Source: an uncultured Opitutia bacterium (lineage in GTDB: Bacteria > Verrucomicrobiota > Verrucomicrobiia > Opitutales > Opitutaceae). From it: a DNA stretch of 64,000 nt. The notes under the pieces were generated by a model, which saw only the letters and a list, made by a program, of their open reading frames with translations, did no database searches and was not told the origin of the DNA. The stretch is taken from NCBI GenBank assembly GCA_903862955.1, contig CAIPAH010000014.1, positions 26,379 to 90,378 of the forward strand. Direction: 5' to 3'. Made by a program: the position numbers and the translations under genes. Position 1 is the stretch's first letter; every line of letters begins with the position of its first letter. Positions 1 through 33,281 of the stretch are shown one piece after another.

Positions 1-657
1 GGCGTCTATGAATTGGAAGGGAAGGCCGCGAGCGGTGCGCTGTCCCACGTGGGGGAGGAGGCGCTGCTGTTCGCCCTGAAGGGGCGGGTGACGGTCGAGT
101 TGGGGGGCAAGACCTTTGTTCTGGACCCCTACGACGTGCTCTACGTGCCCCGCAGCCAAGTGTACCGCCTCCGCCAGGAAGACGGCCAGTCAAGGTTGGT
201 GGTATGCCGGGCCCCCGCCACGGCTGAGCACCCGATTTATCACGCCAGCTGGAAGAAATACTCCAAGGACGAAAGCCGGATCCGGCACCTGAAGGGCAAG
301 GACGTCTTCCTGATGTTCGATGTGAGCGAAGGCGCCGACAAACTGATGGCGGGTTTCACGCTGTTCCAGCCCGGGCAGCGCTCCTGGCCGCCCCACAACC
401 ACACGGATCAGGAAGAAATTTACATTTTCACCAAAGGGCGCGGCGCCATGGAGGTGTACGCGGAAGAGGAAACCAAGAGCTTTGTCCGCAGTGTGTCCGA
501 AGGTGACGCGGTGACGATTCCCCTGTTGAATTACCACCCGGTATTCAGTCAGGAGGAGGAACTGCATTTCATCTGGTGCATTGCCGGCAACCGCTACTGG
601 GTCGGCGACAAGAACAAGGATTTCATGAGCGGCAAGGTGGACAAACTAACGACCTGA
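1..657 (+). CDS. Bicupin isomerase-like protein (IolB/KduI-like), 5' end cut off; candidate sulfoquinovose isomerase
   Basis: The frame is open from the first base, so the true start lies outside the window. About 218 residues remain and show two cupin halves. The first ends in a P-R-S-Q stretch, and the second carries a metal-site signature PPHNH followed by a Q-E-E-I run and a later N-Y-H. This resembles the IolB/KduI group of aldose-ketose isomerases (family knowledge). It is the first visible gene of a plus-strand operon that leads through sulfolactate sulfo-lyase and a transaldolase. I infer that it may isomerise sulfoquinovose to 6-deoxy-6-sulfofructose, a step known to be done by a cupin-like enzyme in transaldolase-type sulfoglycolysis. 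A role with another sugar acid is possible. Only one base separates its stop from the next start. Confidence 0.6.
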   Translation, partial: GVYELEGKAASGALSHVGEEALLFALKGRVTVELGGKTFVLDPYDVLYVPRSQVYRLRQEDGQSRLVVCRAPATAEHPIYHASWKKYSKDESRIRHLKGKDVFLMFDVSEGADKLMAGFTLFQPGQRSWPPHNHTDQEEIYIFTKGRGAMEVYAEEETKSFVRSVSEGDAVTIPLLNYHPVFSQEEELHFIWCIAGNRYWVGDKNKDFMSGKVDKLTT

Positions 658-658
658 G

Positions 659-1573
659 ATGAGCGTCGTGCGGGAGGTGATTGCGTTCCGGGGCTGGCCC
701 AACGCCCTGCGGCTCGCCAACGGCACGGCCGAGCTGATTGCGACGCTCGATGTCGGGCCGCGGATCTTGTCGTACACCCGGCAGGGCGGACTGAACCCTT
801 TCAACATTTACGAGGATCAAGCAGGCGGCCGGGGTGAAGCGCAGTGGCGGAATCGCGGGGGTCACCGGCTCTGGCTGGCGCCGGAGGCTCCTGGTTTCAG
901 CAATTTCCCGGACAACCAGCCGGTGGCTTGGGAAAAACTGGGGGAGTCTGGGGTCCGGCTGATTCCTCCGCCGGAGCCCGCAACGGGCTTTCAGAAGCAG
1001 ATTGACCTCACGCTGGCGGACACGGGGGCCCGGGTGACGGTGGTTCACCGCATCAGCCGGATCTCTCCGGTTGCCTGCACCGCTGCGCCGTGGGCGTTGA
1101 GCGTTATGGCGGCAGGCGGGACTGCGATCCTGCCCCAGCCGCCCTTCGGCGAACATCCCCGCGACCTGCTGCCCAACCGGCGGCTGGTGGTCTGGCCCTA
1201 CACAGATCTTTCCGACGCACGCTACCGGCTCGGGCGGAAGTTTTTCACCATGCGACAGGATACCGCGGGGGTACCGACCAAGATCGGGCTGGCCACGTCG
1301 GTGGGCTGGGCCGCCTATCATTTGCAGCGCACCCTGTTCATCAAATATTTCACCCGGACGGCCGGCGTCGACTACCCCGACGACGGCTGCAACCTCGAGG
1401 TTTTCACCAATGCAAGGATGCTGGAGCTGGAAACGCTGGGGCCACTGCAACGCTTTGAACCCGGCACCACCGCGGAGCTGACCGAGAATTGGGACCTGCG
1501 GACCGATCTGCCCGAAATCGACCCCAGCGATGAAGCCGCCTTGGCGGCTTATTTTCGGCTTGCTCCCGTCTAG
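659..1573 (+). CDS. DUF4380-like aldose-epimerase-fold protein; candidate sulfosugar mutarotase
   Basis: This 304-residue protein begins with a beta-rich section containing the phrase ATLDVGPRILSY and a later HRLWLAPE. I associate these with DUF4380 proteins, which resemble galactose mutarotase. No signal peptide or membrane segment is visible. The ATG follows the upstream cupin stop by one base, so the two are translationally linked. Sulfoglycolytic operons often carry an aldose-1-epimerase-like gene (YihR in E. coli). By analogy this protein may interconvert anomers of sulfoquinovose, but that is inference. The catalytic residues were not checked against a mutarotase alignment. Confidence 0.6.
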   Translation: MSVVREVIAFRGWPNALRLANGTAELIATLDVGPRILSYTRQGGLNPFNIYEDQAGGRGEAQWRNRGGHRLWLAPEAPGFSNFPDNQPVAWEKLGESGVRLIPPPEPATGFQKQIDLTLADTGARVTVVHRISRISPVACTAAPWALSVMAAGGTAILPQPPFGEHPRDLLPNRRLVVWPYTDLSDARYRLGRKFFTMRQDTAGVPTKIGLATSVGWAAYHLQRTLFIKYFTRTAGVDYPDDGCNLEVFTNARMLELETLGPLQRFEPGTTAELTENWDLRTDLPEIDPSDEAALAAYFRLAPV

Positions 1574-1620
1574 TTATTTCGGAATCGTAATAATTCTTCG
1601 CTCCAACCCTCCCAAAACCA

Positions 1621-1899
1621 ATGATCTCATTCCTCATGCACGAAAAACAGGACACCGTCGGCGTCGCCGTGGTGGACCTCAAAGCCGGCCAGGTGGTGCA
1701 GGGACGCTCCCTGCATGGCAAGGCCTCCCCGAGGCTCAAGGTCCTCAGTGACATTCCACTGGGGCACAAGATTGCCCTCCAGGCTTTCAAGCCGGGCGAC
1801 ACGGTCTTCAAATATGGCGTCGATATCGGAAAGATCGTGGCGCCGATCAAAAAGGGCGGCCACGTCCACGTGCACAACCTCAAGACCAAGCGCTGGTAA
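1621..1899 (+). CDS. suyA: (2R)-sulfolactate sulfo-lyase small subunit (SuyA), SAF domain
   Basis: The 92-residue protein consists of one SAF domain: [15 protein letters not shown], then [14 protein letters not shown], ending in [12 protein letters not shown]. UxaA-type altronate dehydratase small subunits share the fold, but the C-terminal HNLKTKRW ending and the partner gene fit SuyA, the small subunit of sulfolactate sulfo-lyase, which splits (R)-sulfolactate to pyruvate and sulfite. The ATG at 1621 was taken; an in-frame ATG at 1636 is also possible. The large subunit follows after 8 bases. In the window this enzyme would supply sulfite to the dsr genes about 21 kb away. The chief alternative is the small subunit of a sugar-acid dehydratase. 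Confidence 0.85.
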
Positions 1900-1907
1900 A
1901 ATTCCCC

Positions 1908-3071
1908 ATGAAAACTCCCACCTTTCTCGGCTATCGCCGCAAAAACAAGCGGGTCGGCATCCGCAATCATGTCATCATTCTGCCGGTTGATGATATTTCC
2001 AACGCGGCCTGCGAGGCCGTGGCCAACAACGTCAAGGGCACGATGGCTCTGCCGCATGCCTACGGGCGGCTGCAGTTCGGCGAGGACCTCGAACTCTTCT
2101 TCCGCACGATGATTGGCACGGGGTCCAACCCCAATGTGGCCGCGGTCATCGTGATTGGCATCGAGCCAGGTTGGACGCAGCGGATCGTGGACGGCATCGC
2201 CAAGACGGGCAAGCCGGTCGCGGGTTTTTCAATCGAGCGCCATGGCGACTTGCAGACGATTGCGGACGCCGCGCGCAAGGCGAAGGAGTACGTCCAGTGG
2301 GCCAGCGAGCTCCAGCGCGAGGAATGCTCGGTCGACGAACTCTATATCTCGGTCAAATGCGGCGAGTCGGATACGACCACTGGCCTGGGCTCCTGCCCGG
2401 CGGTGGGCAACGTGATCGACAAGACCGTGGCGATGGGCGCCACCGCCTCCTTTGGCGAGACGACTGAATTGACCGGCGGTGAGCACATCGTGAAGGCAAA
2501 GGCAGCTACACCGGCGGTGGCAGCGGCCTTCATGAAGGTGTGGAACAACTACAACGATATGGTCATGAAGGAGAAGACTGACGATTTGTCCGAGTCGCAG
2601 CCGACCAAGGGCAACATTCGCGGCGGCCTCACCACGATCGAGGAAAAGGCGATGGGCAACATCGAGAAGCTCGGCAAGAAGACGAAATTCGTGGGCGTGC
2701 TCAAGCCCGCCGAAGCTCCGACCCGCAAGGGTCTCTGGTTCATGGATACCTCGTCTGCGGCGGCCGAAGCGGTGACGCTATGGGCGGCCTCGGGGGCGGT
2801 GGTGCACCTGTTCCCGACGGGGCAGGGCAATATCATCGGAAATCCGATCGAACCCGTGATCAAGCTGTCCGCCAATCCTCTCACCTGCGCGACGATGAGC
2901 GAGCATATCGATCTCGATGTCTCGGCCATTCTCCGGGGTGAAATGTCCGTGGACCAAGCCGGCGACAAGCTGCTGGCCATGGTTGTGCGGACCGCCAGTG
3001 GACGTCTCACGGCCGCGGAGGCCTTGGGTCATCGTGAATTCGTAATGACGAAGCTCTATCGAAGCGCCTAG
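1908..3071 (+). CDS. suyB: (2R)-sulfolactate sulfo-lyase large subunit (SuyB), UxaA family
   Basis: The 387-residue protein belongs to the UxaA/GarD dehydratase superfamily. Recognisable stretches are [20 protein letters not shown] near the start, [74 protein letters not shown], and the ending [13 protein letters not shown]. From memory these match SuyB, which forms the iron-dependent lyase with SuyA, and not altronate dehydratase. The conserved cysteines of KCGES and GSCPAV probably bind the metal centre. The reaction releases sulfite and pyruvate in the cytoplasm. The position next to a transaldolase and an aldehyde dehydrogenase supports sulfoquinovose as the upstream source. Confidence 0.88.
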
Positions 3072-3093
3072 TTGCTGCGCCGCTTCGCGGACC

Positions 3094-4293
3094 ATGCCGA
3101 CCGAAAGCGCATCATCGAGCCGCTGCGGCGTGGCGTGGGCCAGGAAGCAAGTCCGCGATCTCGCCGTGGCGGTAAACGTGCCGCCCGGCGATGCCGGGCG
3201 GTTCGCGGATGCCTTGGTGGCCGCGGACGTGCAGGGCATCCCCACCCACGGGATTTCCCGGCTGAACGTCTATCTCCGACGCATTCAAGCCGGGCTCATC
3301 AATCCGCGGGCCAAGTTGTCGGTTATCCGGCAGCGGGGTGGGGTGCTCGTGCTCGACGCCAACCATGGCCTCGGGCAGGTCCAAGCGCTCAAGGCCCTCG
3401 ACCGGCTGGTACCGCTGGCGCGGGAACATGGCGTGGCGGTCGCGACGATCCGCAACTCGCAGCACTTCGGAGCACTGTCGTATTACTGCAACCAAGCGGC
3501 GGCTCAGGACATGATTCTGATTGCCTCCACGAATGGCGAACCGGCCATGTCGCCCGAGGGCGGGTGCCAGGCTTTCTTCGGCACCAACCCTTTGGCCGCG
3601 TCCTTCCCGACAGGCCGGGGCGGGCCTGTGAAGATTGATTTTGCCACTGCGATCGTGGCACGGGGCAACATCATTGCGGCGCAAAAGCGCGGCCAGCCGA
3701 TCCCTCCTGGCTGGGCGCTGAACGGCGAAGGCGAGCCGACGACCGATGCGGCGGCGGCGCTGGCGGGCACGGTCCTCACCTTGGGCGGGCACAAGGGCTA
3801 CGCCTTGGCCTTGATGTTGGAAGTTTTGTCCGGGGTGCTGTCGGGCGCGGCCATCGGCCCGGCGGTGGGTTCGATGTACAAAGACATGAACCGTCGGCAG
3901 GGGGTGGGCCATTTCTTCTGCCTGCTGGACATCGCGGCATTCATGGAGGTCTCCGAGTTCAAGCAGCGGATTGACCAGACGATCGACGGGATCAAGGCGT
4001 GCCGGAAACGTCCCGGCGTGTCCGAGATCCTCATCCCGGGGGAAAGTTCGCACCGCGAGGCACAGCAGAACCGCTTGCAGGGAATTCCCGTGGACGAATC
4101 CACGCAGAGCGAAATCAAGCAGTTGTGCATGGACCTGGGCGTGAAATTCCGGCTCGGTCCAGTGGCCCGCAGCCGGTCCGCGTGTACCCGGCGGCGGCCC
4201 TTGTCGCGCGTGACCGCGCAAGTTCACCGTGGCGCAAAATCCCATTCCAATTTCCGCGGATTAACCCATCAAGCGCACGGGCGACCACAGTGA
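3094..4293 (+). CDS. Ldh_2-family 2-hydroxyacid dehydrogenase, ComC-like; candidate sulfolactate dehydrogenase
   Basis: The 399-residue protein shows the Ldh_2 (malate/L-sulfolactate dehydrogenase) family hallmarks: GIPTHGISRLNVYLRRI, NGEPAMSPEGG, FFGTNPLAASFP and LGGHKGYALALMLEVLSGVL. Members oxidise 2-hydroxyacids with NAD(P). ComC of this family interconverts (R)-sulfolactate and sulfopyruvate. Between SuyB and a LarA homologue the likeliest substrate is sulfolactate. The family normally ends near residue 355 (GVKFR). Here the frame continues about 45 arginine-rich residues that look non-native, so the usual stop may have been lost. Its TGA overlaps the ATG of the next gene. Confidence 0.82.
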   Translation: MPTESASSSRCGVAWARKQVRDLAVAVNVPPGDAGRFADALVAADVQGIPTHGISRLNVYLRRIQAGLINPRAKLSVIRQRGGVLVLDANHGLGQVQALKALDRLVPLAREHGVAVATIRNSQHFGALSYYCNQAAAQDMILIASTNGEPAMSPEGGCQAFFGTNPLAASFPTGRGGPVKIDFATAIVARGNIIAAQKRGQPIPPGWALNGEGEPTTDAAAALAGTVLTLGGHKGYALALMLEVLSGVLSGAAIGPAVGSMYKDMNRRQGVGHFFCLLDIAAFMEVSEFKQRIDQTIDGIKACRKRPGVSEILIPGESSHREAQQNRLQGIPVDESTQSEIKQLCMDLGVKFRLGPVARSRSACTRRRPLSRVTAQVHRGAKSHSNFRGLTHQAHGRPQ

Positions 4294-5549
4294 TGCAAAT
4301 CCAGGTTCCATATGGGCGGGCTTTCGTATCTGCCCGCGTCCCAGACCAGACCGGGATCGATATCATTGAGGCGCCGGAGACACCGGGGGCCGGCGATCCG
4401 TTGGGCCTCGTCCGCTCAGCCTTGGCCAACCTTCTCGGCGGAGCAAAGTGGGCTGATTTCGCGGGAGCGCGCTCGGTGGCCATCACCGTCAACGACAAGA
4501 CGCGCCCGGTTCCGCATCACCAGCTCTTGCCGCCGTTGCTGGAGCGCCTCGCGGTCCTCGGGATCCCCGATGCCGCCATCACTTTCTACGTGGCCGTGGG
4601 CACCCACCCGCCGATGACGCGCGACGAATTTCCCGCGATCCTGCCGGAGGAGATTCTGAAACGCTACCGGGTGGTGTCACACGACGCGGAAAATGGCGAC
4701 CTGCTGACCAACTTGGGCGAAACCTCCCGTGGCACGCCAATCTGGTCCAACAAGGCCTATGTCGCGTCCGACCTAAAGATCGTGGTGGGCAATCTCGAGC
4801 CGCACCAGTTCGTCGGCTTCTCGGGCGGCGTCAAAGGCGCGGCCATCGGGCTTTCCGGGTTGCAGACGATCAACCGCAATCACGCCCTGATGATGCATCC
4901 CGATTCCCAGTTGGGCGAATACGAGACGAACCCGGCGAGGCAGGATGTGGAGGAAATCGGCGCCAAGATGGGAATCCATCTGGCGCTGAATACCATCTTG
5001 AACCAGCACCGGCAGATCGTGCATGTGCTCGCGGGTGAGCCGCGCGCCGTGATGCGGGCCGGGGTGCCGCTTTCGCGGCAGGTCTGCCAGGTGGGCGTTA
5101 CTTCCAGGTACGGCCTCATCATCACCTCGCCCGGCGGCCATCCCAAGGACATCAATGTATACCAGGCCCAGAAAGCGCTCGGGCACGCGGCGCTGATCGC
5201 CCGGCCGGGCGGCACCATCATCCTCGTGGCGGCCTGTCCCGAAGGCACGGGCAGCCCGCATTATGAGGAGTGGATGGCGGGCAAGAGGTCCTACGACGAA
5301 ATCATCAACCGCTTCAGCGCCGAGGGCTTCCGGATCGGGCCGCACAAGGCTTACCAAATTGCCCGCGATGCTTCCAAGACGCGGTTGCTTTTCTGCACCG
5401 GGATGGACGAGCACCTGGCGCGGACCCTGTTGCTCAATCCGGTCAGGGATTTGCAGGCCGCCGTGGACAAGGCGTTGCCGGGACTGCAGCCCGGCGAGCG
5501 GATCGGCGTTCTGCCCCATGCCAACTCCACCATTCCTTTCCTAAAATAG
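4293..5549 (+). CDS. LarA-type nickel-pincer racemase/epimerase; candidate sulfolactate racemase
   Basis: Starting at the ATG that overlaps the preceding stop gives 418 residues. The LarA catalytic set is intact: R71 in NDKTRP, H105 in GTHPP, H171 in LEPHQF, the cofactor lysine K181 in GGVKG, and H197 in NRNHALM. All lie 3-4 residues before the numbering I remember for Lactobacillus plantarum LarA (R75, H108, H174, K184, H200). Known members racemise or epimerise 2-hydroxyacids with a nickel-pincer nucleotide. The maturation genes larB, larC and larE are not in the window. The position between Ldh_2 and the SLA-producing enzymes suggests conversion of (S)- to (R)-sulfolactate. The longer in-frame extension upstream of 4293 overlaps the dehydrogenase gene and is not credible. 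Confidence 0.85.
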
Positions 5550-5629
5550 AGCGCCGCCATTTTTTCCCAATCCAACCGTCCCCGCCCTCCGGCGGAGGCA
5601 CCCAACCCGCAACCAGAACGAAAGTATTT

Positions 5630-6277
5630 ATGAAACTATTCATCGACACAGCTGACGTCGCCCAAATCAAGGAGACCTATGCGTGGGGCATCATTGATGG
5701 TGTGACCACGAATCCTTCCCATGTCGCGAAAACCGGCCGGCCGGCGGCCGCCGTCTACCGGGACATCTGCGCCATCGTCGACGGGCCGATCAGCCTCGAG
5801 ACACTCAGCCTCACCGCACCCGAGATGATCGTCGAGGGGCGTGAGCTCGCCAAGTTTCACCGCAACGTGGTCGTGAAGATCCCCATGACGCGCGAGGGCA
5901 TGAAGGCCGTGAAGGTCCTGTCCGCGGAGGGCATCAAGACCAACGTGACGGTGACCTTTTCGCCGCTGCAGGCGCTGCTCGCCGCCAAGTGCGGGGCGAC
6001 CTACATCAGTCCCTTTGTGGGGCGCTTGGACAGCTTCGGCCACAACGGCATGGATTTGGTCCGGCAGATCAAACAGATCTACGCGAACTACGGCTACAAG
6101 ACCGAGATCATCGTCGCCGCGGTCCGGCATCCTATGCATGTGCTCGAGGCCGCGCTGGCCGGCGCGGAGATAGCCACGATGGGCTATGACGTCATGGTCC
6201 AGCTCTATCACCACCCGTTGACCGATCTGGGCATCGAAACCTTCCTGAAGGATTGGAAAAAAGTTCCACAGTCATGA
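5630..6277 (+). CDS. Small transaldolase (FSA/TalC-like); candidate 6-deoxy-6-sulfofructose transaldolase
   Basis: The 215-residue protein is a short transaldolase/fructose-6-phosphate aldolase: [24 protein letters not shown], the Schiff-base lysine K83 in [25 protein letters not shown], and [10 protein letters not shown]. Short transaldolases of this type act as sulfofructose transaldolases (SftT/SqvA) in one sulfoglycolysis route, moving a three-carbon unit to glyceraldehyde 3-phosphate and leaving 3-sulfolactaldehyde. The flanking genes (SuyAB, aldehyde dehydrogenase, a sulfoquinovosidase nearby) make that role likely. A housekeeping sugar-phosphate role cannot be excluded from sequence alone. 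The start was set at the ATG giving a family-typical N-terminus; the last base of its stop forms an ATGA overlap with the next gene. Confidence 0.82.
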
Positions 6278-8996: not shown

Positions 8997-9042
8997 CCGG
9001 AAGGCAGGTGGGCGGCGCCGAGCGCGATCGCTCTGGACTGGA

Positions 9043-10647: not shown

Positions 10648-10724
10648 GATGGGTGGGGGATGGGTTGGCCGGTTCTTGCCGGAAGTGGCGGTAGGGCGTT
10701 TGTCGTATGGGCTTGATCTGGGCG

Positions 10725-24343: not shown

Positions 24344-24372
24344 ACAACCAATCCCAAGAAAGGACCATCCCC

Positions 24373-25431: not shown

Positions 25432-25488
25432 GTCACCCCTTTCCGGCCCCGGTTACGCGCCACTTTCAACCCAGATTCCATCAGCACC

Positions 25489-25806: not shown

Positions 25807-25895
25807 CGCATCCGGCTGCAGTTTGCCGGTGCCGCGGGGGCGCAAGTCTCCTCGAGCGGGCGTCGGCGATCAACCCATAGAACCACCGCCTCCCC

Positions 25896-26081
25896 ATGTA
25901 CGTCATCACAATCGATGAGGCCAAGTGCACCCAGTGCACCGAATGCGTGAAGATCTGCCCCTCCGAGGTGTACAAGCTGGTGAACGGGCGGGTCGTCGTC
26001 GGCAACAGCGACGACTGCAGCAGGTGCGAAAGCTGCCTGTCGGTATGCGTGCCCGGGGCAATTACCGTCGTTGAAATGTAA
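25896..26081 (+). CDS. Small 2[4Fe-4S] ferredoxin of the dsr operon
   Basis: The 61-residue protein is a bacterial-type ferredoxin with two clusters: CTQCTECVKICP near residues 11-22 and CSRCESCLSVCVP near 42-54. It is cytoplasmic and probably carries electrons to DsrAB or between central metabolism and the Dsr complex. It lies between dsrC (89 bases) and dsrM (17 bases). Small ferredoxins inside dsr operons are known in some sulfate and sulfite reducers. Confidence 0.9.
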   Translation: MYVITIDEAKCTQCTECVKICPSEVYKLVNGRVVVGNSDDCSRCESCLSVCVPGAITVVEM

Positions 26082-26098
26082 CCGCCGGTGAATTTCCC

Positions 26099-27187: not shown

Positions 27188-28788
27188 GCGAGGACGCCAA
27201 GCCCGCGAGACCGGCCAAGGTGCCGTTCGCTCCGAGTTCGCGCGACTGGCTCGAACCGACCGTGAAATTTGCCGCCGGGCGGTGGAGTTACAGCGCCAAG
27301 CCGAAGTCACTCCGCACGCTGGAGTTTCCGAATCCCCGCGACTGGTCGCCGGACCAGCCGGACTGGAAGCTCCCCGATAACTGGAAGGAAATCATCCTGC
27401 AGGGCTTGCGGGAGAGGATGGACCGTTTCCGGTCGCTGAGGCTTTTCATGGACTGCTGCGTGCGCTGCGGGGCCTGCGCCGACAAGTGCCACTACTTCAT
27501 CGGCACGGGCGATCCGAAGAACATGCCGGTGCTGCGCGCCGAGCTACTGCGCTCGGTTTACCGCGGGGAGATGACGCTGGCGGGCCGCCTGCTTGGGCGG
27601 TGGGCCGGCGGCCGGCGGCTGACCCCCGAGGTGCTCAAGGAATGGTTTTACTACTTCTACCAATGCACGGAATGCCGGCGGTGCTCGGTCTTCTGCCCGT
27701 TCGGCATTGACCAGGCCGAAATCACGATGCTCGGCCGCGAGCTGCTGAATCTACTGGGCTTGAACATCAACTGGGTGATGGAGCCGGCGGCCAAGTGTTT
27801 CACCACCGGCAATCATCTTGGGATCACGCCCCACGGGCTTAAGGACAACCTGGAGTTCTTCGTGGATTCCATTGAGGAAATCACCGGCGTAAGGGTAAAC
27901 CCGTCGATCAACCGGAAGGGCGCGGACGTCCTCTTTGTGGCCCCGTCGGGCGACCTCCTGGCCGAGCCCGGCATTTTCACCCTGATGGGCTACCTGCTGG
28001 TGCTGCATCAAAGCGGCCTCAATTACACTTGGAGCAGCTACGCGTCGGAAGGGGGAAATTTCGGCATGTTCGCGTCGCATGAGCTCATGAAAGGCTTGAA
28101 CGCGAAGATTTACGCCGAGGCGCGCCGACTGGGCGTCAAGTGGATCCTCGGCGGCGAATGCGGTCACATGTGGCGCGTGGCGCACCAGTACATGGAAACC
28201 ATGAACGGACCGGCGGACTTTTTACAGGAGCCGATTTCGCCGATCACCGGCACGCACTTTCAAAACGCCCGGACCACGCGCATGGTGCACATCGCCGAGT
28301 TCACCGCTGACCTCATCCAGCAGGGAAAACTCAAGCTGGCTCCGGAGCGCAACGACCGCTACCGGGTCACATTCCATGACTCGTGCAACCCGGCCCGTTC
28401 CATGGGGCTGCTGGAGGAACCGCGCTATATCCTGAGAAGCACCTGCCGGCATTTCCACGAGATGCCCGCTGAGACGATCCGGGAGAAGACATTCTGCTGC
28501 GGCTGCGGCGCGGGACTTGGCGGCGAGGAATGCATGGATCTGCGGATGCGCGGCGGCATTCCCCGGGCCGAGGCGGTTCGCAGCGTGCGGGAGAAATACG
28601 GCGTCAACCTGCTCTCCTCCATTTGCGCCATCGACCGGGCAGTCCTGCCGACGTTGATGGATCATTGGGTTCCGGGCGTCGGCGTTGCGGGGCTGCACGA
28701 GCTGGTCGGCAACGCGCTCGTGCTCGACGGCGAGAAGGAACGCACCATCAACCTGCGCGGCGAACCGTTGCACGAAGGCGAGACGTGA
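27184..28788 (+). CDS. dsrK: DsrK, iron-sulfur CCG-domain subunit of DsrMKJOP
   Basis: The 534-residue protein contains two [4Fe-4S] motifs, CCVRCGACADKCHYFIG (about residues 90-106) and CTECRRCSVFCPFGID (about 160-175). C-terminal cysteine-rich CCG segments follow: GGECGHMWRVAHQ, FHDSCNPARSMGL and FCCGCGAGLGGEEC. The CCG segments bind the catalytic non-cubane cluster, as in heterodisulfide reductase HdrD. DsrK reduces the DsrC trisulfide at the cytoplasmic face, with electrons from DsrM. The length is typical of DsrK. The gene overlaps dsrM by 4 bases and is followed by dsrJ after one base. Confidence 0.93.
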   Translation: MSEDAKPARPAKVPFAPSSRDWLEPTVKFAAGRWSYSAKPKSLRTLEFPNPRDWSPDQPDWKLPDNWKEIILQGLRERMDRFRSLRLFMDCCVRCGACADKCHYFIGTGDPKNMPVLRAELLRSVYRGEMTLAGRLLGRWAGGRRLTPEVLKEWFYYFYQCTECRRCSVFCPFGIDQAEITMLGRELLNLLGLNINWVMEPAAKCFTTGNHLGITPHGLKDNLEFFVDSIEEITGVRVNPSINRKGADVLFVAPSGDLLAEPGIFTLMGYLLVLHQSGLNYTWSSYASEGGNFGMFASHELMKGLNAKIYAEARRLGVKWILGGECGHMWRVAHQYMETMNGPADFLQEPISPITGTHFQNARTTRMVHIAEFTADLIQQGKLKLAPERNDRYRVTFHDSCNPARSMGLLEEPRYILRSTCRHFHEMPAETIREKTFCCGCGAGLGGEECMDLRMRGGIPRAEAVRSVREKYGVNLLSSICAIDRAVLPTLMDHWVPGVGVAGLHELVGNALVLDGEKERTINLRGEPLHEGET

Positions 28789-28789
28789 G

Positions 28790-29287
28790 ATGAAACTCTA
28801 TCACGGCCAATACATCCTGCCCGGGCTCGCCCTTTTCCTCGTGGTGACGACGCTGCCAATCTGGCTCGGCGCGGGCGGCGGCAACCCGGGTTTTCGCAGC
28901 CCGCCCAATCCCGGTGGGGAGCGGTGCATCGAGCCGAAGGAGTTCATGCGCGTCGAACACATGCGAATCCTCGTGCGCTGGCGCGATGACGTGGTCCGGG
29001 AAGGCAACCGCGTCTATGTTGCGACGGACGGCCGCCACTGGGAGAAGGGTTTGAAAACCTGCGTGGCCTGTCACGGCTATGCGGATGCGCGCGGGAAATC
29101 CACCACCGCCGCGGCTGCCTGCAGCGAGTGCCACGGCTACGTCGACGCGAAGCTGGATTGCTGGAATTGCCACCACGAGTCGGCGGCTGGCGCCGCTGAA
29201 CGAATGCGTCCCCGAGTGTGGTCCGGGAATGCCACGGCGGAAAATGCGGGAACGCTCGCGGTCTCGAGTAGAAAGGAGCCGCAATGA
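28790..29287 (+). CDS. dsrJ: DsrJ, periplasmic triheme cytochrome c
   Basis: The ATG one base after the dsrK stop gives 165 residues; the longer in-frame extension is not real. An uncleaved signal anchor (ILPGLALFLVVTTLPIWLG) is followed by C46 in ERCIEPKEFMRVEHM, the position of the unusual cysteine heme ligand in known DsrJ. Three heme motifs follow: CVACH (91-95), CSECH (111-115) and CWNCH (124-128). This matches the three hemes expected. It is attached to the periplasmic side and exchanges electrons within the DsrMKJOP complex. Confidence 0.93.
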   Translation: MKLYHGQYILPGLALFLVVTTLPIWLGAGGGNPGFRSPPNPGGERCIEPKEFMRVEHMRILVRWRDDVVREGNRVYVATDGRHWEKGLKTCVACHGYADARGKSTTAAAACSECHGYVDAKLDCWNCHHESAAGAAERMRPRVWSGNATAENAGTLAVSSRKEPQ

Positions 29288-30069
29288 AGTGTAACCGGCG
29301 AGCGATGCTGAAGCTCACGCTGCTGGCCGCTGCCGGACTCGCGCGCCGGCGGCCCCTGTTCGCGGCTTTGGTGTCCGCCGTGCCCACGGACGTGCTGAAG
29401 CCCGGTGCGGCGCTCAGGTCCGGTCGGTGGGCGATGGTAATCGATCTCAGAAAATGTCTGGAGTCGAAGGACTGTCACGCCGCCTGCGCGCGCGCCTGCC
29501 ACTTGGAGCACAATGTCCCGGACATCGCCAACCCGCGGCACGAGGTGAAGTGGATTTGGCGCGAGCAGGGAGCGCATCTGTTTCCCGATCAACTGGACGA
29601 GTTTCGCGGTGCGGCGCTGGCGGATCAGCCCATGCCGGCCCTCTGCAACCACTGCGACAATCCACCATGCACGCGGGTGTGCCCGACCGGGGCCACGTTT
29701 AAGCGGCCGGACGGCATCGTTGTGATGGATCCGCACCGCTGCATCGGCTGCCGGTTCTGCATGGCGGCGTGCCCGTATGGCTCGCGCAGCTTCAACTGGG
29801 AGGACCCGCGGCCCTCGCTGAAGCACGTTAATCCGGACTATCCGACGCGCGGCAAAGGCGTGGTGGAAAAATGCTCCTTCTGTGACGAGCGGTTGGCCCA
29901 GGGCCGGATGCCCGCCTGCGTCGAAGCCTGCACCTGCGGCGCCATGGCGTTTGGCGACTTGCGGGACGAGCAATCGCCCGTCGTGAAACTTCTGCGCGAA
30001 AACTACAGCATCCGCCGCAAGCCCGAGCTCGGGACCCAACCGGCGGTGTATTACCTGGTATCAAAATGA
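29284..30069 (+). CDS. dsrO: DsrO, periplasmic iron-sulfur subunit with Tat-like signal
   Basis: The 261-residue protein begins CNRRAMLKLTLLAAAGLA, a twin-arginine signal (RR-x-x-L-K), so it is probably exported folded. It contains four ferredoxin-type clusters: CLESKDCHAACARAC, CNHCDNPPCTRVCPTGA, CIGCRFCMAACPYGS, and CSFCDERLAQGRMPACVEAC. This is the NrfC/HybA/PsrB-like arrangement used by DsrO, linking DsrJ hemes to DsrP. The gene overlaps dsrJ and dsrP by four bases each, indicating tight coupling. Confidence 0.92.
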   Translation: MKCNRRAMLKLTLLAAAGLARRRPLFAALVSAVPTDVLKPGAALRSGRWAMVIDLRKCLESKDCHAACARACHLEHNVPDIANPRHEVKWIWREQGAHLFPDQLDEFRGAALADQPMPALCNHCDNPPCTRVCPTGATFKRPDGIVVMDPHRCIGCRFCMAACPYGSRSFNWEDPRPSLKHVNPDYPTRGKGVVEKCSFCDERLAQGRMPACVEACTCGAMAFGDLRDEQSPVVKLLRENYSIRRKPELGTQPAVYYLVSK

Positions 30070-31226
30070 TCGAGCGAGCCTTCATCGGACGGGGTCGTTA
30101 CCAGCTTTGGCTGGCGGGCTGGCTGATTCCAGTCGGCATCGGCCTGGCGTGTTACCTTTTCCAATATTCCCATGGCTTGGGCATTACGGGAATGGGTCGC
30201 GACGTGATCTGGGGGTTCTACGTCGCCCAATTTACTTTCCTGGTGGGCGTCGCGGCGTCCGCGGTGATGGTCGTCGCCCCGTTCTATCTCCACGACTGCC
30301 GGGAGTTCGCCCGTATCGTCATCCTGGGGGAATTTCTGGCCGTCACGGCGGTGATCATGTGCGTGCTGCACATCTTCGTTGATCTCGGCCAGCCGGCACG
30401 CGTCTTGAACGTGCTGCTGCACCCGTCCCCGGGCTCGGTGATGTTCTGGGACATGATCGTGTTGACCGGCTACCTCGGACTCAACTTGGTCATCGCTTGG
30501 ACGACACTCGACTGCGAGCGCAACGCCACCCGTCCACCGCGTTGGATCAAGCCGTTGATCTTTCTCTCCATCCCTTGGGCGGTTGCCATCCACACGGTCA
30601 CGGCCTTTCTCTATTCCGGCCTGCCCGGGCGTCATCTTTGGCTCACCGCCGTGGTGGCACCGCGGTTTCTCGCCACGGCGTTTGCGTCCGGCCCGGCCCT
30701 GCTCGTCCTCCTTTGCCTGCTGTTGAAAAAGGCCGTGGGATTCGACGCCGGCAAGGAAGGGCTCCGCCGGCTCTCCTTCACGATCGTCTACGCGATGCTC
30801 GCGAACCTGTTCTTCATTTTCGTTGAGTCCTTCACCGCGTTTTACAGCGGCGTGCCGAGTCACCGGCATGACTTGCAGTATCTCTTCTGGGGTCTCGATG
30901 GGCACGCCGCCATGGTTCCCTGGATGTGGCTGTCGCTGCTCATGGCGGTCGCGTCCCTTCCGATCTTGCTGAGTTCCATCCGGCGCGGAAACCAGCGGCG
31001 GCTGGCGCTGGCCTGTGGGCTCGTATTTTTCTCCACGTGGATCGACAAAGGGCTCGGATTCATCGCGGGCGGACTCGCGGTCTCCCCGATGGGGACGGTC
31101 GCTAGCTACGCCCCAACCGTTCCGGAGCTGCTGATCAGTCTCGGGATCTACGCCGTGGGGGTGCTGCTCCTGACGCTGTTCTACAAGATTGTCCTCTCGG
31201 TTCGGGCGGAAACGGAGAGCCCGTAA
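30066..31226 (+). CDS. dsrP: DsrP, NrfD-like integral membrane quinone-interacting subunit
   Basis: The 386-residue protein has about ten membrane helices and NrfD-family features, for instance GMGRDVIWGFYVAQFTFLVG near the N-terminus, LYSGLPGRHLWLTAVVAPRF, SFTAFYSGVPSHRHDLQYL and DKGLGFIAGGLAVSPMG. DsrP interacts with menaquinone in the inner membrane and exchanges electrons with DsrO. It overlaps dsrO by four bases. With dsrM, K, J and O the complete five-subunit complex is present in canonical order. Confidence 0.92.
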   Translation: MIERAFIGRGRYQLWLAGWLIPVGIGLACYLFQYSHGLGITGMGRDVIWGFYVAQFTFLVGVAASAVMVVAPFYLHDCREFARIVILGEFLAVTAVIMCVLHIFVDLGQPARVLNVLLHPSPGSVMFWDMIVLTGYLGLNLVIAWTTLDCERNATRPPRWIKPLIFLSIPWAVAIHTVTAFLYSGLPGRHLWLTAVVAPRFLATAFASGPALLVLLCLLLKKAVGFDAGKEGLRRLSFTIVYAMLANLFFIFVESFTAFYSGVPSHRHDLQYLFWGLDGHAAMVPWMWLSLLMAVASLPILLSSIRRGNQRRLALACGLVFFSTWIDKGLGFIAGGLAVSPMGTVASYAPTVPELLISLGIYAVGVLLLTLFYKIVLSVRAETESP

Positions 31227-31245
31227 ACTACCGCACTCTTTCCAC

Positions 31246-32514
31246 ATGAAAACACTCCTCATCCTCGGCGCGGGTACGGCTGGGACCATCGTGGCGAACA
31301 AGATGTCGCGCCGACTTGATCCGCGCGACTGGCGGATCGTGGTCGTGGACCGGGAGAAAAGGCATTTCTACCAACCGGGCTACCTGTTCATTCCCTTCGG
31401 GCAGTACTCGCCGGCGCAAGTGGTCAAACCGAAACGGAACTTCCTGCCTTCGCGGGTGGAGGTCGTCTTCGATGATGTCGAAATCATCGATCCGCAGAAC
31501 AGCCAGGTGAAACTGGCCGGGTCACCGGAAAAGATCGTCTACGACCAATTGGTCATCGCCACCGGATGCGACATCGACCCGAAGGAGACGCCGGGCCTGG
31601 TCGACGGGGGCTGGCGGAAAAACATCTTCGATTTCTACACCTTTGAGGGGGCTTCGGCGCTCGCGGCCCACCTGCGCAACTGGCCGGGCGGACGCCTGGT
31701 CATGAGCATCGCCGAAATGCCCATCAAGTGCCCGGTCGCCCCGCTGGAGTTCCTGTTTTTGGCGGATGCGTTTTTCCGCGAGCGCGGCCTGCGTCGTAAA
31801 GTTGAGCTGATTCTGGCGACGCCACTCACGGGCGCGTTCACGAAGCCCATCGCTTCGGCGGCCTTGGCCGGCCTGCTCCAGCGCAAGGGGATCCAGGTCG
31901 TACCCGATTTCACCCTGAGCGAGGTAGACAACCGCCGGGGCGCGCTCATGTCCTACGACAATCGGGAGGTTCCCTTTGACCTGCTGGTGACGGTCCCCGT
32001 CAACAAGGGAGCCGAGGTCATCGGCCGGTCCGGCATGGGCGATGAACTCAACTACGTCGAGACCGACCCTCACACGTTGCGTGCAAAACGGTGGCCCAAT
32101 GTCTGGGTAATTGGCGACGCGGCTGACGTCCACACTGCCAAGGCCGGTTCTGTGGCCCACTTCATGGCCGACATCCTGGTGGATAACCTGTTTCACGAAA
32201 TCAGGGGCCGGACCGGGCCGTATCCCGCCAGTTTCGACGGCCACGCGAACTGCTTCATTGAAACGGGCTTCGGGCGGGCGCTCCTCATCGACTACAGCTA
32301 TACCGCGGAGCCGCTGCCCGGTTCATTTCCGCTGCGCCGCTTCGGCCCGCTCCCGTTGCTCAAGGAGTCCAGGCGCAATCACTGGGGAAAACTTCTGTTT
32401 CGCCCGATCTACTGGCACCTGTTGCTACCCGGCCGGCTGCCGTTTCCGCCCCACTATCGACCCCCGGGAAGGTCGGCGCGGAGAACTTCCCGTTCGGATT
32501 CGGCCGCCAAGTAG
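31246..32514 (+). CDS. Sulfide:quinone oxidoreductase-like FAD flavoprotein
   Basis: The ATG at 31246 gives 422 residues. The N-terminus is an FAD Rossmann motif (LLILGAGTAGTIVANKM). Three cysteines fall where SQR-type enzymes use them: in IATGCDIDP, in MPIKCPVAPLEF, and in GHANCFIETGF. The C-terminus (NHWGKLLFRPIYWHLLLPGRLPFP) is amphipathic and typical of one membrane-bound SQR branch. SQRs oxidise sulfide to sulfur with quinone, which seems to oppose a sulfite reducer. It may detoxify or recycle sulfide, or serve as a different electron entry to the Dsr system. It is 19 bases downstream of dsrP and overlaps cobA, which runs the other way, by 61 bases. Confidence 0.82.
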   Translation: MKTLLILGAGTAGTIVANKMSRRLDPRDWRIVVVDREKRHFYQPGYLFIPFGQYSPAQVVKPKRNFLPSRVEVVFDDVEIIDPQNSQVKLAGSPEKIVYDQLVIATGCDIDPKETPGLVDGGWRKNIFDFYTFEGASALAAHLRNWPGGRLVMSIAEMPIKCPVAPLEFLFLADAFFRERGLRRKVELILATPLTGAFTKPIASAALAGLLQRKGIQVVPDFTLSEVDNRRGALMSYDNREVPFDLLVTVPVNKGAEVIGRSGMGDELNYVETDPHTLRAKRWPNVWVIGDAADVHTAKAGSVAHFMADILVDNLFHEIRGRTGPYPASFDGHANCFIETGFGRALLIDYSYTAEPLPGSFPLRRFGPLPLLKESRRNHWGKLLFRPIYWHLLLPGRLPFPPHYRPPGRSARRTSRSDSAAK

Positions 32515-33281
32515 GCAAGGGACCGCGGCCGGTGCGCCGCAACCTCGCCGATAATAACGATCGCCGGCGAGGCAATGCCCGCGGCTTCCGCGCGCTCGGT
32601 CAAGTCGCCCAGGGTGGCAAACACCTCTCGCCGCCCTTCCATTGTCGCCCCTTGGATGACCGCGGCGGGCGTGTCCGGCGAAAGCCCGCCATCCTGAAGC
32701 TCCCGCGTGATCCCCGCCAGGCGGTGCAAGCCCATGTAGATGCAAAGTGTCGCATTGAGCCGGGCGTAGTCCCGCCAGCGCACCGCCCCGTCGGGCTTTC
32801 CCGGGCACTCGTGTCCGGTGAGGAAAACCAGTGCCGAAGTATGGGCGCGATGGGTGAGGGGAATCCCGGCCGCGGCCGCTGCTCCCAGCGCGGCGGTGAT
32901 GCCCGGGACGACATGGACCGGAATCCCGGCCGAAGTGAGCGCCTCGGCCTCCTCGCCACCCCGGCCGAAAACGAACGGGTCGCCCCCTTTCAAGCGCACG
33001 ACGTTTCGTCCCCGGCGGGCGAGCGCGATGAGGAGCCCGTTGATCTCGGCTTGGGGATGACAAGCGTGCCCCGCCTTCTTGCCGACGAACACGCGTTCGC
33101 ACCCGGGCGGAACCTCGGCAAGGATCTCCGGCGCCACCAAGTAATCGTAAACGACCACCTCGGCTGAACGGATCAGCCGCAGGGCCTTGACCGTCAGAAG
33201 TTCCGGATCGCCCGGGCCGGCGCCCACGAGGTAGACGACGCCGGGGACGATGACAGGTGCCTCTGGGGGTGACGTGCTCAC
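32454..33281 (-). CDS. cobA: Uroporphyrinogen-III C-methyltransferase (siroheme biosynthesis)
   Basis: From the GTG at 33281 the protein has 275 residues and full SUMT signatures: VYLVGAGPGDPELLTVKALRL, EVVVYDYLVAPEIL, NVVRLKGGDPFVFGRGGEEA and VPGITAALGAAAAAGIPLTHR. It makes precorrin-2, the first committed step towards siroheme, the DsrAB cofactor. No fused or adjacent precorrin-2 dehydrogenase/ferrochelatase is visible. The longer frame begins with a TTG inside the operator-like motif and is unlikely. The 3' end overlaps the flavoprotein gene convergently. Placement beside dsr suggests dedicated siroheme supply. Confidence 0.92.
   Translation of the reverse strand: MSTSPPEAPVIVPGVVYLVGAGPGDPELLTVKALRLIRSAEVVVYDYLVAPEILAEVPPGCERVFVGKKAGHACHPQAEINGLLIALARRGRNVVRLKGGDPFVFGRGGEEAEALTSAGIPVHVVPGITAALGAAAAAGIPLTHRAHTSALVFLTGHECPGKPDGAVRWRDYARLNATLCIYMGLHRLAGITRELQDGGLSPDTPAAVIQGATMEGRREVFATLGDLTERAEAAGIASPAIVIIGEVAAHRPRSLAYLAAESEREVLRADLPGGR

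What the first reader, a model, noticed from the sequence alone, without database searches (positions are those of the whole stretch)
1..33281. One locus appears to encode sulfoquinovose breakdown all the way to sulfide
Seen: sulfoquinovosidase, cupin isomerase, small transaldolase, aldehyde dehydrogenase, sulfolactate sulfo-lyase SuyAB, then a complete dsrABC-dsrMKJOP set and cobA, in 33 kb. Known: SuyAB yields pyruvate and sulfite; DsrABC plus DsrMKJOP reduces sulfite to sulfide; in described anaerobic systems sulfoquinovose use and sulfite respiration are, as far as I recall, usually split between two organisms. Inference: this bacterium makes its own respiratory electron acceptor from the sugar it eats, retaining fructose-6-phosphate, pyruvate and glycerol carbon. 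That would be an unusual self-contained sulfonate-respiring lifestyle for a Verrucomicrobium.
Basis: partly seen in the sequence, partly recalled or inferred. Interest (0 to 1): 0.95.

Follow-up and report, generated by a model that had tools for sequence, protein, structure and literature searches.

The report
Sulfosugar eater that breathes its sulfite
One 33,000-base stretch of a genome that is likely Verrucomicrobiota holds genes predicted to break the plant sulfosugar sulfoquinovose down to pyruvate and sulfite, next to a full gene set that would respire that sulfite to sulfide, so a single cell would likely do what the papers we searched describe as the work of two bacteria.

Summary
In detail: all named genes are there, plus a LarA-family racemase, an Ldh2 dehydrogenase and a mutarotase-like protein. 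SuyB groups with sulfolactate sulfo-lyases (64-69% identity, one side of a branch 100/100), not with hexarate dehydratases (30-40%). The DsrAB belongs to a 13-member clade of Verrucomicrobiota and Planctomycetota beside lineages described as early-branching. In 10 of these 13 genomes a SuyB of the same kind occurs, each time clustered with SuyA and a small transaldolase; among 386 other sampled Verrucomicrobiota one has it. AprA reaches its cut-off in 2 of the 13, not in the window's genome. In three genomes the sugar and dsr blocks share a contig. Best reading: one cell likely cuts sulfoquinovose to fructose-6-phosphate, pyruvate and sulfite, and reduces that sulfite through DsrABC-DsrMKJOP. 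Unproven: direction of Dsr, growth, LarA as sulfolactate racemase (residues kept, but LarC and LarE not found in three of its four genomes), the cupin as isomerase. Haem-copper oxidases and a sulfide:quinone reductase leave detoxification or oxidation open. A new variant of known modules.

The parts
1..657 (+). Cupin of the KduI/IolB type (starts about 105 bases before the window); predicted sulfoquinovose to sulfofructose isomerase
   Evidence: PF04962 62 bits; IolB profile 44 bits, far below its cut-off of 205; same place in G387 (91%) and beside LarA in G391 (56%, cut by the contig end); the window's genome, G387 and G391 have no SftI-like isomerase at 1e-10
659..1573 (+). Mutarotase-like protein
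   Evidence: NF052227 263 bits, below its cut-off of 550; no Pfam match; also in the clusters of G387, G388, G372
1621..1899 (+). SuyA-like small subunit of sulfolactate sulfo-lyase
   Evidence: SAF domain; 47-49% identical to the SuyA-position proteins of Cupriavidus pinatubonensis and Paracoccus aestuarii
1908..3071 (+). SuyB, large subunit of sulfolactate sulfo-lyase
   Evidence: 66% to Cupriavidus pinatubonensis, 69% to two Paracoccus; one side of a branch 100/100 against UxaA/GarD-like rows
3094..4293 (+). Ldh2-family dehydrogenase, ComC-like
   Evidence: PF02615 386 bits; L-sulfolactate dehydrogenase is the best NCBIfam match, 270 bits, below the cut-off of 500
4293..5549 (+). LarA-family racemase (LarAH5 malate-racemase type); predicted sulfolactate racemase
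   Evidence: NF052595 531 bits, cut-off 462; nearest solved chain Mar2 6d6z 254 bits; residues kept, read by eye
5630..6277 (+). Small transaldolase; predicted sulfofructose transaldolase
   Evidence: PF00923 189 bits, TIGR00875 314 bits, cut-off 246; the 10 cluster transaldolases aligned share a Ser-to-Ala change at column 166 against two ordinary ones
6274..7695 (+). Aldehyde dehydrogenase, predicted sulfolactaldehyde dehydrogenase
   Evidence: PF00171 539 bits; Trp-Asn-Phe with Arg 7 residues on, and Arg 6 before the catalytic Cys, as in RlGabD (PMC10599462, passages)
7690..8996 (+). ROK-family regulator
   Evidence: PF00480 plus winged helix; start not fixed, ORF runs from 7623
9043..10647 (-). 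GlpD-like glycerol-3-phosphate dehydrogenase
   Evidence: 312 bits, below the cut-off of 360
10725..12230 (-). GlpK glycerol kinase
   Evidence: TIGR01311 712 bits, cut-off 590
12255..14273 (-). YihQ-type GH31 sulfoquinovosidase
   Evidence: PRK10426 953 bits, cut-off 553; best solved chain 5ohy (yihQ) 932 bits over 3-659 of 672
14638..17013 (+). TonB-dependent outer-membrane receptor
   Evidence: PF00593, PF07715
17233..18552 (+). MFS transporter
   Evidence: PF07690; sialate and aromatic acid symporter models below cut-off
21728..22564 (+). AraC-family regulator
   Evidence: PF12833, PF02311
22919..24343 (+). DsrA with an N-terminal extension holding two CxxC pairs
   Evidence: TIGR02064 327 bits, below the cut-off of 392.85; 3mm5_A 254 bits; cysteines
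24373..25431 (+). DsrB
   Evidence: TIGR02066 365 bits, cut-off 341.5; 3mm5_B 289 bits
25489..25806 (+). DsrC with both C-terminal cysteines (residues 93 and 104)
   Evidence: PF04358 132 bits; cysteines
25896..26081 (+). Two-cluster ferredoxin
   Evidence: the 25 NCBIfam matches shown of 39 are all below cut-off, mostly ferredoxin-type
26099..27187 (+). DsrM
   Evidence: NF038037 415 bits, cut-off 300
27184..28788 (+). DsrK
   Evidence: NF045796 691 bits, cut-off 400
28790..29287 (+). DsrJ
   Evidence: NF038038 109 bits, cut-off 100
29284..30069 (+). DsrO
   Evidence: NF045797 296 bits, cut-off 200
30066..31226 (+). DsrP
   Evidence: NF045798 428 bits, cut-off 350
31246..32514 (+). Type III sulfide:quinone reductase
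   Evidence: NF049943 580 bits, cut-off 525
32454..33353 (-). CobA, uroporphyrinogen-III methyltransferase (sirohaem path)
   Evidence: TIGR01469 301 bits, cut-off 185

Best explanation
This locus likely lets one cell take the plant sulfosugar sulfoquinovose apart to pyruvate and sulfite and then use that sulfite as its own electron acceptor, reducing it to sulfide. Predicted route: YihQ frees sulfoquinovose from its glycerol glycoside (GlpK and GlpD take the glycerol); the cupin turns it into sulfofructose; the small transaldolase moves three carbons on to glyceraldehyde-3-phosphate, giving fructose-6-phosphate and sulfolactaldehyde; the aldehyde dehydrogenase makes (S)-sulfolactate; LarA (or Ldh2 with a partner) turns it into (R)-sulfolactate; SuyAB splits this to pyruvate and sulfite; DsrAB with DsrC and DsrMKJOP reduces the sulfite. 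Shown here: the genes, their families, their linkage, and the recurrence of SuyAB plus transaldolase with this DsrAB clade. Inferred: every substrate, the direction of Dsr, and energy conservation.
For: Families and order. SuyB is a sulfolactate sulfo-lyase by clade and identity; of 13 plasmid records at 60-80% identity I opened five: one has hpsN and hpsO close by, three have a hydroxyacid or NAD(P) oxidoreductase and an Ldh dehydrogenase, one has neither in the stretch. DsrAB: 13-row clade, SH-aLRT 100, apart from a 19-row, mostly proteobacterial clade. SuyB at E<=1e-100 in 10 of 13 genomes of that clade, with a transaldolase in the SuyB cluster in 10 of 10; background 1 of 386 Verrucomicrobiota besides the window's own genome; for the named Verrucomicrobiota members alone 4 of 5 vs 1 of 386, Fisher p 2.6e-8 (kinship not corrected). 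AprA over cut-off in 2 of 13. No DsrE-family match in the window's genome, G387, G388. Sugar and dsr blocks on one contig in 3 genomes. In planctomycete relatives the cluster is SuyA-SuyB-Ldh2-2HADH-transaldolase-ALDH-SftI-like isomerase, which by order and family resembles the published sulfo-transaldolase route joined to sulfolactate cleavage.
Against: No expression or growth data. The genome has haem-copper oxidases (4 COX1 matches) and a sulfide:quinone reductase in the dsr block, which suit other uses of Dsr. DsrE-family proteins over cut-off do occur in 8 of the 13 clade genomes. LarC and LarE (best 46 bits, cut-off 150) were not found in the window's genome, G387 or G388, so LarA may lack its cofactor. 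The transaldolase scores higher against ordinary transaldolases (1vpx 269 bits) than against sulfofructose transaldolase 8bc3 (166 bits). The cupin has no close solved kin, and G388 has no such cupin in the stretch read. The SftI-like proteins of relatives score 167 and 133 bits against an SftI cut-off of 700. A 39% SuyB homologue in Variovorax also has hydroxyacid and Ldh dehydrogenases beside it, so that neighbourhood alone does not mark SuyB. Three of 13 clade genomes lack SuyB, and the G372 cluster has no dsr. For the planctomycetes both blocks lie on different contigs of metagenome bins, some bins are near-copies (G392 and G393 have identical SuyB), and none has a true YihQ. DsrD and DsrL were not searched genome-wide.
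Confidence: 0.68

Rival explanations
1. The sugar part is right, but Dsr is a safety valve: sulfite set free inside the cell by SuyAB is toxic, and Dsr reduces it to sulfide for assimilation or export while the cell respires oxygen.
For: Four COX1-type matches in the genome; the same kind of sugar-to-sulfite cluster occurs without dsr in G372, where a YeiH-type transporter closes the cluster; a YeiH gene also lies just upstream of the window's cluster.
Against: A full DsrMKJOP membrane complex, which in known organisms links DsrC to the quinone pool (recalled), is more than a detoxification needs; export through YeiH could already do the job; another NIR_SIR-domain protein, likely assimilatory, is encoded elsewhere (C18).
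Confidence: 0.15
2. Dsr runs in reverse: together with the sulfide:quinone reductase it oxidises sulfide or sulfur, and the sugar cluster beside it is a neighbour by chance.
For: Type III sulfide:quinone reductase directly after dsrP in the window and G387, and after the ferredoxin in L015; DsrE-family proteins in 8 of 13 clade genomes, though not in the window's; PMC10591310 (passages) describes some Verrucomicrobiota with DsrL-1 as likely oxidisers.
Against: DsrAB lies outside the mostly proteobacterial clade, which I recall as the sulfur-oxidiser type; no DsrE-family protein and no AprA in the window's genome, G387, G388; no DsrL-like gene among those identified in the dsr block; no sulfide:quinone reductase match in the G388 block; linkage to SuyB recurs.
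Confidence: 0.09
3. The cluster feeds on another sulfonate, such as sulfofucose, sulfolactate or DHPS, and sulfoquinovose is not the main substrate.
For: The isomerase here is a KduI-type cupin, not SftI; SuyAB in a genome with Dsr but with no transaldolase in the cluster is seen in Rokubacterium L133; a sulfofucose-to-sulfite route exists in Paracoccus (PMC12421959, passages).
Against: The YihQ match is very strong over nearly the full length, glycerol genes follow it, and transaldolase plus SuyAB recur together.
Confidence: 0.08

Closest known systems
Extended sulfo-transaldolase clusters with SuyAB in Thermotogae and Chloroflexi (PMC9594981, passages)
   Same: Sulfo-transaldolase pathway joined to (R)-sulfolactate sulfo-lyase, so that all sugar carbon can be used and sulfite is released
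   Different: No dsr coupling is described in the passages read; here a cupin and LarA stand where SftI and the SlcC-type dehydrogenase stand in relatives, and a dsr block is on the same contig
Two-member sulfoquinovose to sulfide cultures (E. coli with Desulfovibrio DF1; Eubacterium rectale with Bilophila; PMC9594981 and PMC8397734, passages)
   Same: Same overall conversion, sulfoquinovose to sulfide by way of a C3 sulfonate, with SuyAB and Dsr in DF1
   Different: There the C3 sulfonate passes between two species; here both halves are in one genome
Peatland Acidobacteria SbA4 and SbA5 with suyAB and dsr (PMC6018796, passages)
   Same: SuyAB and a sulfite-only Dsr set in one genome; sulfite from sulfolactate proposed as electron acceptor; SbA5 has slcC and comC
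   Different: No sulfosugar front end is described in the passages read; bacterial-type DsrAB, with DsrL and in some bins DsrD
Verrucomicrobia peat MAG SbV1 with early-branching DsrAB (PMC7174415 and PMC10591310, passages)
   Same: Early-branching DsrAB in a Verrucomicrobium without Sat and AprA
   Different: No sulfite source is named in the passages read; SbV1 itself was not among the loci found here, so its place in the clade was not tested
SlcC/ComC sulfolactate racemising pair of Chromohalobacter (PMC9594981, passages)
   Same: Inverts (S)- to (R)-sulfolactate ahead of SuyAB
   Different: Two dehydrogenases; in four genomes here LarA sits in the cluster instead of the 2-hydroxyacid dehydrogenase, in two of them with no Ldh2 in the stretch read
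Malate racemases Mar1/LarAH5 and Mar2/LarAH6 (PMC7583248, sections 7 and 8)
   Same: Family, catalytic and cofactor residues, and the GHK motif; its Lys is thought to hold malate's second acid group
   Different: Substrate here predicted to be sulfolactate; LarC and LarE not found in three of the four genomes

Membership tests
Sulfolactate sulfo-lyase SuyAB | SuyB in the clade of sulfolactate lyases, apart from altronate/galactarate dehydratases | tested here: met
   16 SuyB rows against 8 UxaA/GarD-like rows, support 100/100; 66% to Cupriavidus pinatubonensis HN-2; the studied JMP134 enzyme itself was not at hand
Sulfolactate sulfo-lyase SuyAB | Separate small SAF subunit directly before SuyB | tested here: met
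   1621-1899 then 1908-3071
Sulfolactate sulfo-lyase SuyAB | Cleaves (R)-sulfolactate to pyruvate and sulfite | not testable with these tools
   needs purified enzyme
Sulfoquinovosidase YihQ (GH31) | Full-length match over the curated YihQ-type model | tested here: met
   953 bits vs 553 (the model is named alpha-glucosidase); 5ohy 932 bits
Sulfo-transaldolase pathway | Transaldolase closest to characterised sulfofructose transaldolase | tested here: not met
   1vpx 269 bits vs 8bc3 166 bits; the works-like claim rests on context and on the shared Ser-to-Ala change
Sulfo-transaldolase pathway | SftI-type sulfoquinovose isomerase | tested here: not met
   no match at 1e-10 in the window's genome, G387, G391; SftI-like proteins in G392-G396, G389 and G372, themselves far below the SftI cut-off where scanned
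Sulfolactaldehyde dehydrogenase (GabD/SlaB) | WNF tripeptide and the two arginines proposed to hold the sulfonate | tested here: met
   against PMC10599462 (passages); equivalent arginines bind succinate semialdehyde in human SSADH, so not decisive
Reductive Dsr system | DsrAB, two-cysteine DsrC, DsrMK(JOP) | tested here: met
   DsrA below its cut-off
Reductive Dsr system | DsrAB not in the proteobacterial (recalled: sulfur-oxidiser) clade | tested here: met
   quick tree
Reductive Dsr system | DsrD present, DsrL and DsrEFH absent | tested here: inconclusive
   DsrE family absent from the window's genome; no DsrD or DsrL among genes identified in the block; neither searched genome-wide; PMC10591310 (passages) says the early-branching group lacks both
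Sulfate reducer | AprA present | tested here: not met
   none in the window's genome; Sat not searched
Nickel-pincer racemase LarA | Cofactor and catalytic residues | tested here: met
   Asp, Arg, His, His, Lys, His, Lys equivalents and GHK motif kept, read by eye
Nickel-pincer racemase LarA | LarC and LarE for cofactor synthesis in the genome | tested here: not met
   LarC none; LarE only partial 46-bit match, cut-off 150; LarB not searched

The most novel reading that the evidence does not exclude
A guild in two phyla, marked by one DsrAB clade and mostly without AprA, lives by breathing the sulfite of the sulfosugars it eats: sugar carbon and electron acceptor come from the same molecule, in one cell. 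In part of its Verrucomicrobiota branch a LarA acts as a one-enzyme sulfolactate racemase in place of the SlcC-type dehydrogenase, and a cupin acts as a new kind of sulfoquinovose isomerase in place of SftI. This would give a job to early-branching Dsr enzymes whose sulfite source has been unclear.
Probability: 0.42. Interest if true: 0.87.

Novelty: new variant of a known kind. Interest (0 to 1): 0.76.

Why it matters
Sulfoquinovose is among the most abundant sulfur-bearing organic compounds (stated in PMC11659671 and PMC12890257), and its anoxic conversion to sulfide is described as a hand-over between a fermenter and a sulfite breather. A genome that joins both halves would change who makes sulfide in lakes, wetlands and sediments, and where the energy goes. 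It also offers a testable sulfite source for early-branching DsrAB enzymes found without AprA. The LarA and cupin swaps give two concrete enzyme predictions that can be tested with purified protein.

Tried and rejected
SuyB as altronate or galactarate dehydratase: rejected by tree and identity. The first tree held two badly read rows (L107, L103) and was rebuilt; in the second L107 was read on the other strand, L103 remained a bad row (branch 6.3), and L104, L109 and L128 (identical to L127) were left out.

Two further DsrB hits among the 387 Verrucomicrobiota genomes (G081, G290; 31% identity, E 3.5e-22 and 8.4e-27) were not counted as DsrB.

The DsrAB tree was a quick search, unrooted, with long branches kept in (L066, L084, L043 and others); L043, L057 and L065 may be misplaced because the best DsrA and DsrB stretches were taken mechanically. 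The 13-row clade does not contain them.

G389: one SftI-like gene (66-68%) but no other cluster gene in the 19.7 kb read around it, and its SuyB-like hit is a 26% paralogue: not counted. G397 and G398 have near-identical DsrAB but only G398 has SuyB, so the lack in the smaller G397 bin may be incompleteness; I still counted it as lacking.

Background for SuyB was sampled in Verrucomicrobiota only (387 genomes), not in Planctomycetota, so the association in that phylum has no control. Members of the clade are related to one another; the Fisher value is not corrected for that.

PDB search with the cupin gave only two weak cupin matches. No structure was predicted. No search was made for DsrD, DsrL, Sat, LarB, hydrogenases or pyruvate oxidation.

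The claim that sulfoglycolysis and dsr in one genome were not found in print rests, an open-access library, and on passages, not whole texts. Papers seen in passages: PMC10591310, PMC13219744, PMC11659671, PMC12421959, PMC6018796, PMC12330013, PMC10599462, PMC12890257, PMC11770544, PMC11796402, PMC8397734, PMC9594981, PMC7174415; PMC7583248 in passages and sections 7 and 8; PMC6278857 in listings only.

Full report
The window lies in a 3.61 Mb genome of 31 contigs (listed as 100% complete, 0.12% contamination), at bases 26379-90378 of contig C14. Its nearest named kin by DsrB are an uncultured Opitutae bacterium, AlinenLipids bin-2747 (94%), and an Opitutaceae bacterium, bin-8141 (86%), so a place near Opitutaceae is likely; the genome itself carries no name.

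What is there. From just before the window to base 8996 on the plus strand: cupin, mutarotase-like protein, SuyA, SuyB, Ldh2 dehydrogenase, LarA, small transaldolase, aldehyde dehydrogenase, ROK regulator. On the minus strand follow GlpD, GlpK and a YihQ-type GH31. A TonB receptor, an MFS transporter, three minus-strand genes and an AraC regulator lie between this and the dsr block: DsrA, DsrB, DsrC, a ferredoxin, DsrM, K, J, O, P, a type III sulfide:quinone reductase, and CobA on the other strand. Upstream of the window a YeiH-type (PF03601) transporter points away from the cluster; a gene of that family also follows SuyAB in Paracoccus versutus (31% identity).

SuyB. On plasmids 13 of 314 matching records hold it at 60-80% identity and 301 are below 60% (the listed rows fall from 64% to 40%). 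I opened five of the 13: Cupriavidus pinatubonensis, where hpsN and hpsO are close by; Paracoccus aestuarii, Methylobacterium oryzae and Rhodococcus koreensis, where hydroxyacid or NAD(P)-dependent and Ldh dehydrogenases stand close by; and P. versutus, with neither in the stretch. A 39% homologue in Variovorax has such dehydrogenases too, so the neighbourhood alone is no marker. In a tree of 25 rows the 16 SuyB rows, the window's among them, are one side of a branch with support 100/100 against 8 UxaA/GarD-like rows; Variovorax was put in neither group. PMC9594981 and PMC12890257 (passages) name SuyAB of C. pinatubonensis, and the former also of Paracoccus pantotrophus, as (R)-sulfolactate sulfo-lyase.

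DsrAB. A scan of named genomes with a DsrB alignment returned 135 relatives, 80 kept. In a DsrA plus DsrB tree of 81 rows the window and L011-L022 form a clade of 13 (SH-aLRT 100): five named Verrucomicrobiota, seven Planctomycetota and the window. Next come Rokubacteria, a Chloroflexota bin and Hydrothermarchaeum; 19 mostly proteobacterial rows form their own clade. PMC7174415 and PMC10591310 (passages) describe DsrAB of Rokubacteria, Hydrothermarchaeota and a Verrucomicrobium as early-branching. Only the window, L011 and L012 show DsrMKJOP beside dsrABC; the other ten show a divergent DsrM (30-34%) and DsrK (42-50%) and, in nine, the ferredoxin (several of these contigs are short). Among the 387 sampled Verrucomicrobiota genomes, besides the window's own there were two DsrB hits, both 31% identical, which I take for assimilatory-type.

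Do the sugar genes travel with this Dsr? SuyB at E<=1e-100 is found in 10 of the 13 clade genomes (the window's, G387, G388, G391-G396, G398) and not in G389, G390 (1.5 Mb bin) or G397 (2.9 Mb bin); of four outgroup genomes one, a Rokubacterium, has it. In all 10 the SuyB cluster holds SuyA and the small transaldolase; the Rokubacterium's cluster shows neither transaldolase nor aldehyde dehydrogenase. Among 386 other Verrucomicrobiota, one genome (G372, same family, another genus) has such a SuyB. For the named Verrucomicrobiota members of the clade, 4 of 5 against 1 of 386 gives p 2.6e-8, without correction for kinship and with no planctomycete control. Of 17 genomes searched, a YihQ at 70% or more is limited to the window's genome, G387 and G388, so what sugar feeds the planctomycete clusters is open. 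In these three genomes the sugar block and the dsr block are on one contig, 20-32 kb from the end of SuyB to the start of DsrA.

Source of sulfite. AprA reaches its cut-off in 2 of the 13 clade genomes (G397, and G398, which also has SuyB), not in the window's; six others have only weak matches. Sulfate reduction is therefore unlikely in the window's organism, and a sulfite source such as SuyAB is needed. PMC7174415 (passages) reports the peat MAG SbV1, early-branching DsrAB, to lack Sat and AprA.

Direction of Dsr. For reduction: the tree, the absence of DsrE-family proteins from the window's genome, G387 and G388, no AprA, the two-cysteine DsrC, and the link to SuyAB. PMC10591310 (passages) notes that the early-branching group lacks DsrD and DsrL but has cultured members that reduce. 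Against or open: the sulfide:quinone reductase in the block (also in G387, and after the ferredoxin in L015, but not matched in G388), DsrE-family proteins over cut-off in 8 of the 13 clade genomes, four COX1-type matches in the genome, and that DsrD and DsrL were not searched genome-wide. I hold reduction as likely, not shown.

Two swaps. In planctomycete relatives the cluster reads SuyA-SuyB-Ldh2-2-hydroxyacid dehydrogenase-transaldolase-aldehyde dehydrogenase-SftI-like isomerase (dehydrogenase and isomerase identified by profile in L127, dehydrogenase also in the Verrucomicrobiota bin L131; in L128-L130 an ORF of similar size stands in the same place; L132 is rearranged and shows neither the dehydrogenase nor LarA). 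G372 has the same set without dsr. In the window's genome, G387, G388 and G391, LarA stands in the cluster and no such dehydrogenase was seen; in G388 and G391 Ldh2 is not seen either, though the G391 contig ends soon after. SftI-like genes are absent from the window's genome, G387 and G391, which carry the KduI-type cupin; G388 has neither a close SftI (26%) nor this cupin in the stretch read, only a single-domain cupin. The SftI-like proteins score 167 and 133 bits against the SftI model, cut-off 700. SuyAB needs (R)-sulfolactate while sulfoglycolysis gives the (S) form (PMC12421959 and PMC9594981, passages), so an inverting step is expected here. LarA keeps the residues that PMC7583248 (sections 7 and 8) lists for cofactor and catalysis, and the GHK motif, whose Lys is said to hold malate's second acid group and would suit a sulfonate. 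Against it: LarC and LarE were not found in the window's genome, G387 and G388, while G391 has both. Either the cofactor comes from elsewhere or these LarA proteins do something else; this stays unexplained.

Other enzymes. The aldehyde dehydrogenase has the WNF tripeptide and both arginines proposed for sulfonate binding in RlGabD (PMC10599462, passages). The transaldolase is nearer to ordinary transaldolases than to sulfofructose transaldolase, but the 10 cluster transaldolases aligned (of 11 at hand; L128 was left out) share six residues that differ from two ordinary ones, among them Ala for Ser in the ASIRHP stretch, which I recall as part of the phosphate site.

Balance (arithmetic from known reactions): sulfoquinovose to two acetate and two CO2 frees eight electrons and one sulfite; sulfite to sulfide takes six. 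The sugar thus would supply acceptor for three quarters of its own electrons; the rest would need hydrogen, fermentation or oxygen.

Against the record. Sulfo-transaldolase clusters with SuyAB are known from Thermotogae and Chloroflexi (PMC9594981), suyAB with dsr from peat Acidobacteria (PMC6018796), a sulfosugar-to-sulfite route from Paracoccus (PMC12421959), and sulfoquinovose to sulfide from pairs or consortia of species (PMC8397734, PMC13219744, PMC11659671); all read in passages only. I found no paper with sulfoglycolysis and dsr in one genome. The parts are known; their union in one locus, with the LarA and cupin swaps, is a new variant.

Noticed in passing
L124:5792-8133 (G388): Where other clusters have the aldehyde dehydrogenase, this relative has a type II GAPDH (399 bits, cut-off 185) and a phosphoglycerate kinase; it is the only one of 13 genomes with two PGK matches. 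It could oxidise sulfolactaldehyde with ATP gain, a step not met in the passages read.
   Followed up: partly
window 4293-5549; genomes G000, G387, G388: LarA with the cofactor-binding residues kept but no LarC or LarE found in the genome.
   Followed up: partly
L168 (G372): A genome of the window's family without a DsrB match has a sulfoquinovose-to-sulfite type cluster with SftI-like isomerase, 2-hydroxyacid dehydrogenase, a GFO/IDH/MocA protein that may be an NAD-dependent sulfoquinovosidase, and a YeiH transporter.
   Followed up: partly
window 22919-23200: DsrA carries an N-terminal extension of about 95 residues with two CxxC pairs and no Pfam match; the G387 DsrA aligns over it (496 of 508 residues).
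   Followed up: no
L013-L022 against window 26099-31226: Within one DsrAB clade the electron-input genes differ: full DsrMKJOP in three genomes, a divergent DsrMK (with a ferredoxin in nine of ten) in the rest.
   Followed up: partly
window 31246-32514: A type III sulfide:quinone reductase directly follows dsrP; also in G387, and after the ferredoxin in L015.
   Followed up: no
L023 and L024: These Rokubacteria show a second DsrA and/or DsrB copy just upstream of the first.
   Followed up: no
L133 (G399, the genome of L023, Rokubacterium CSP1-6): SuyA-SuyB with no transaldolase or aldehyde dehydrogenase match in 20 kb: possibly sulfolactate use alone.
   Followed up: no
window 33594-34922: A phage-integrase-family recombinase sits right after the dsr-cobA block, ahead of housekeeping genes (L25, peptidyl-tRNA hydrolase, SSB); the block may have arrived as an island. 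Two same-genus genomes (G345, G369) have no DsrB or SuyB match.
   Followed up: no
L125:914-2926 (G388): A second YihQ-type gene (70%) lies between the sugar and dsr blocks of this relative.
   Followed up: no
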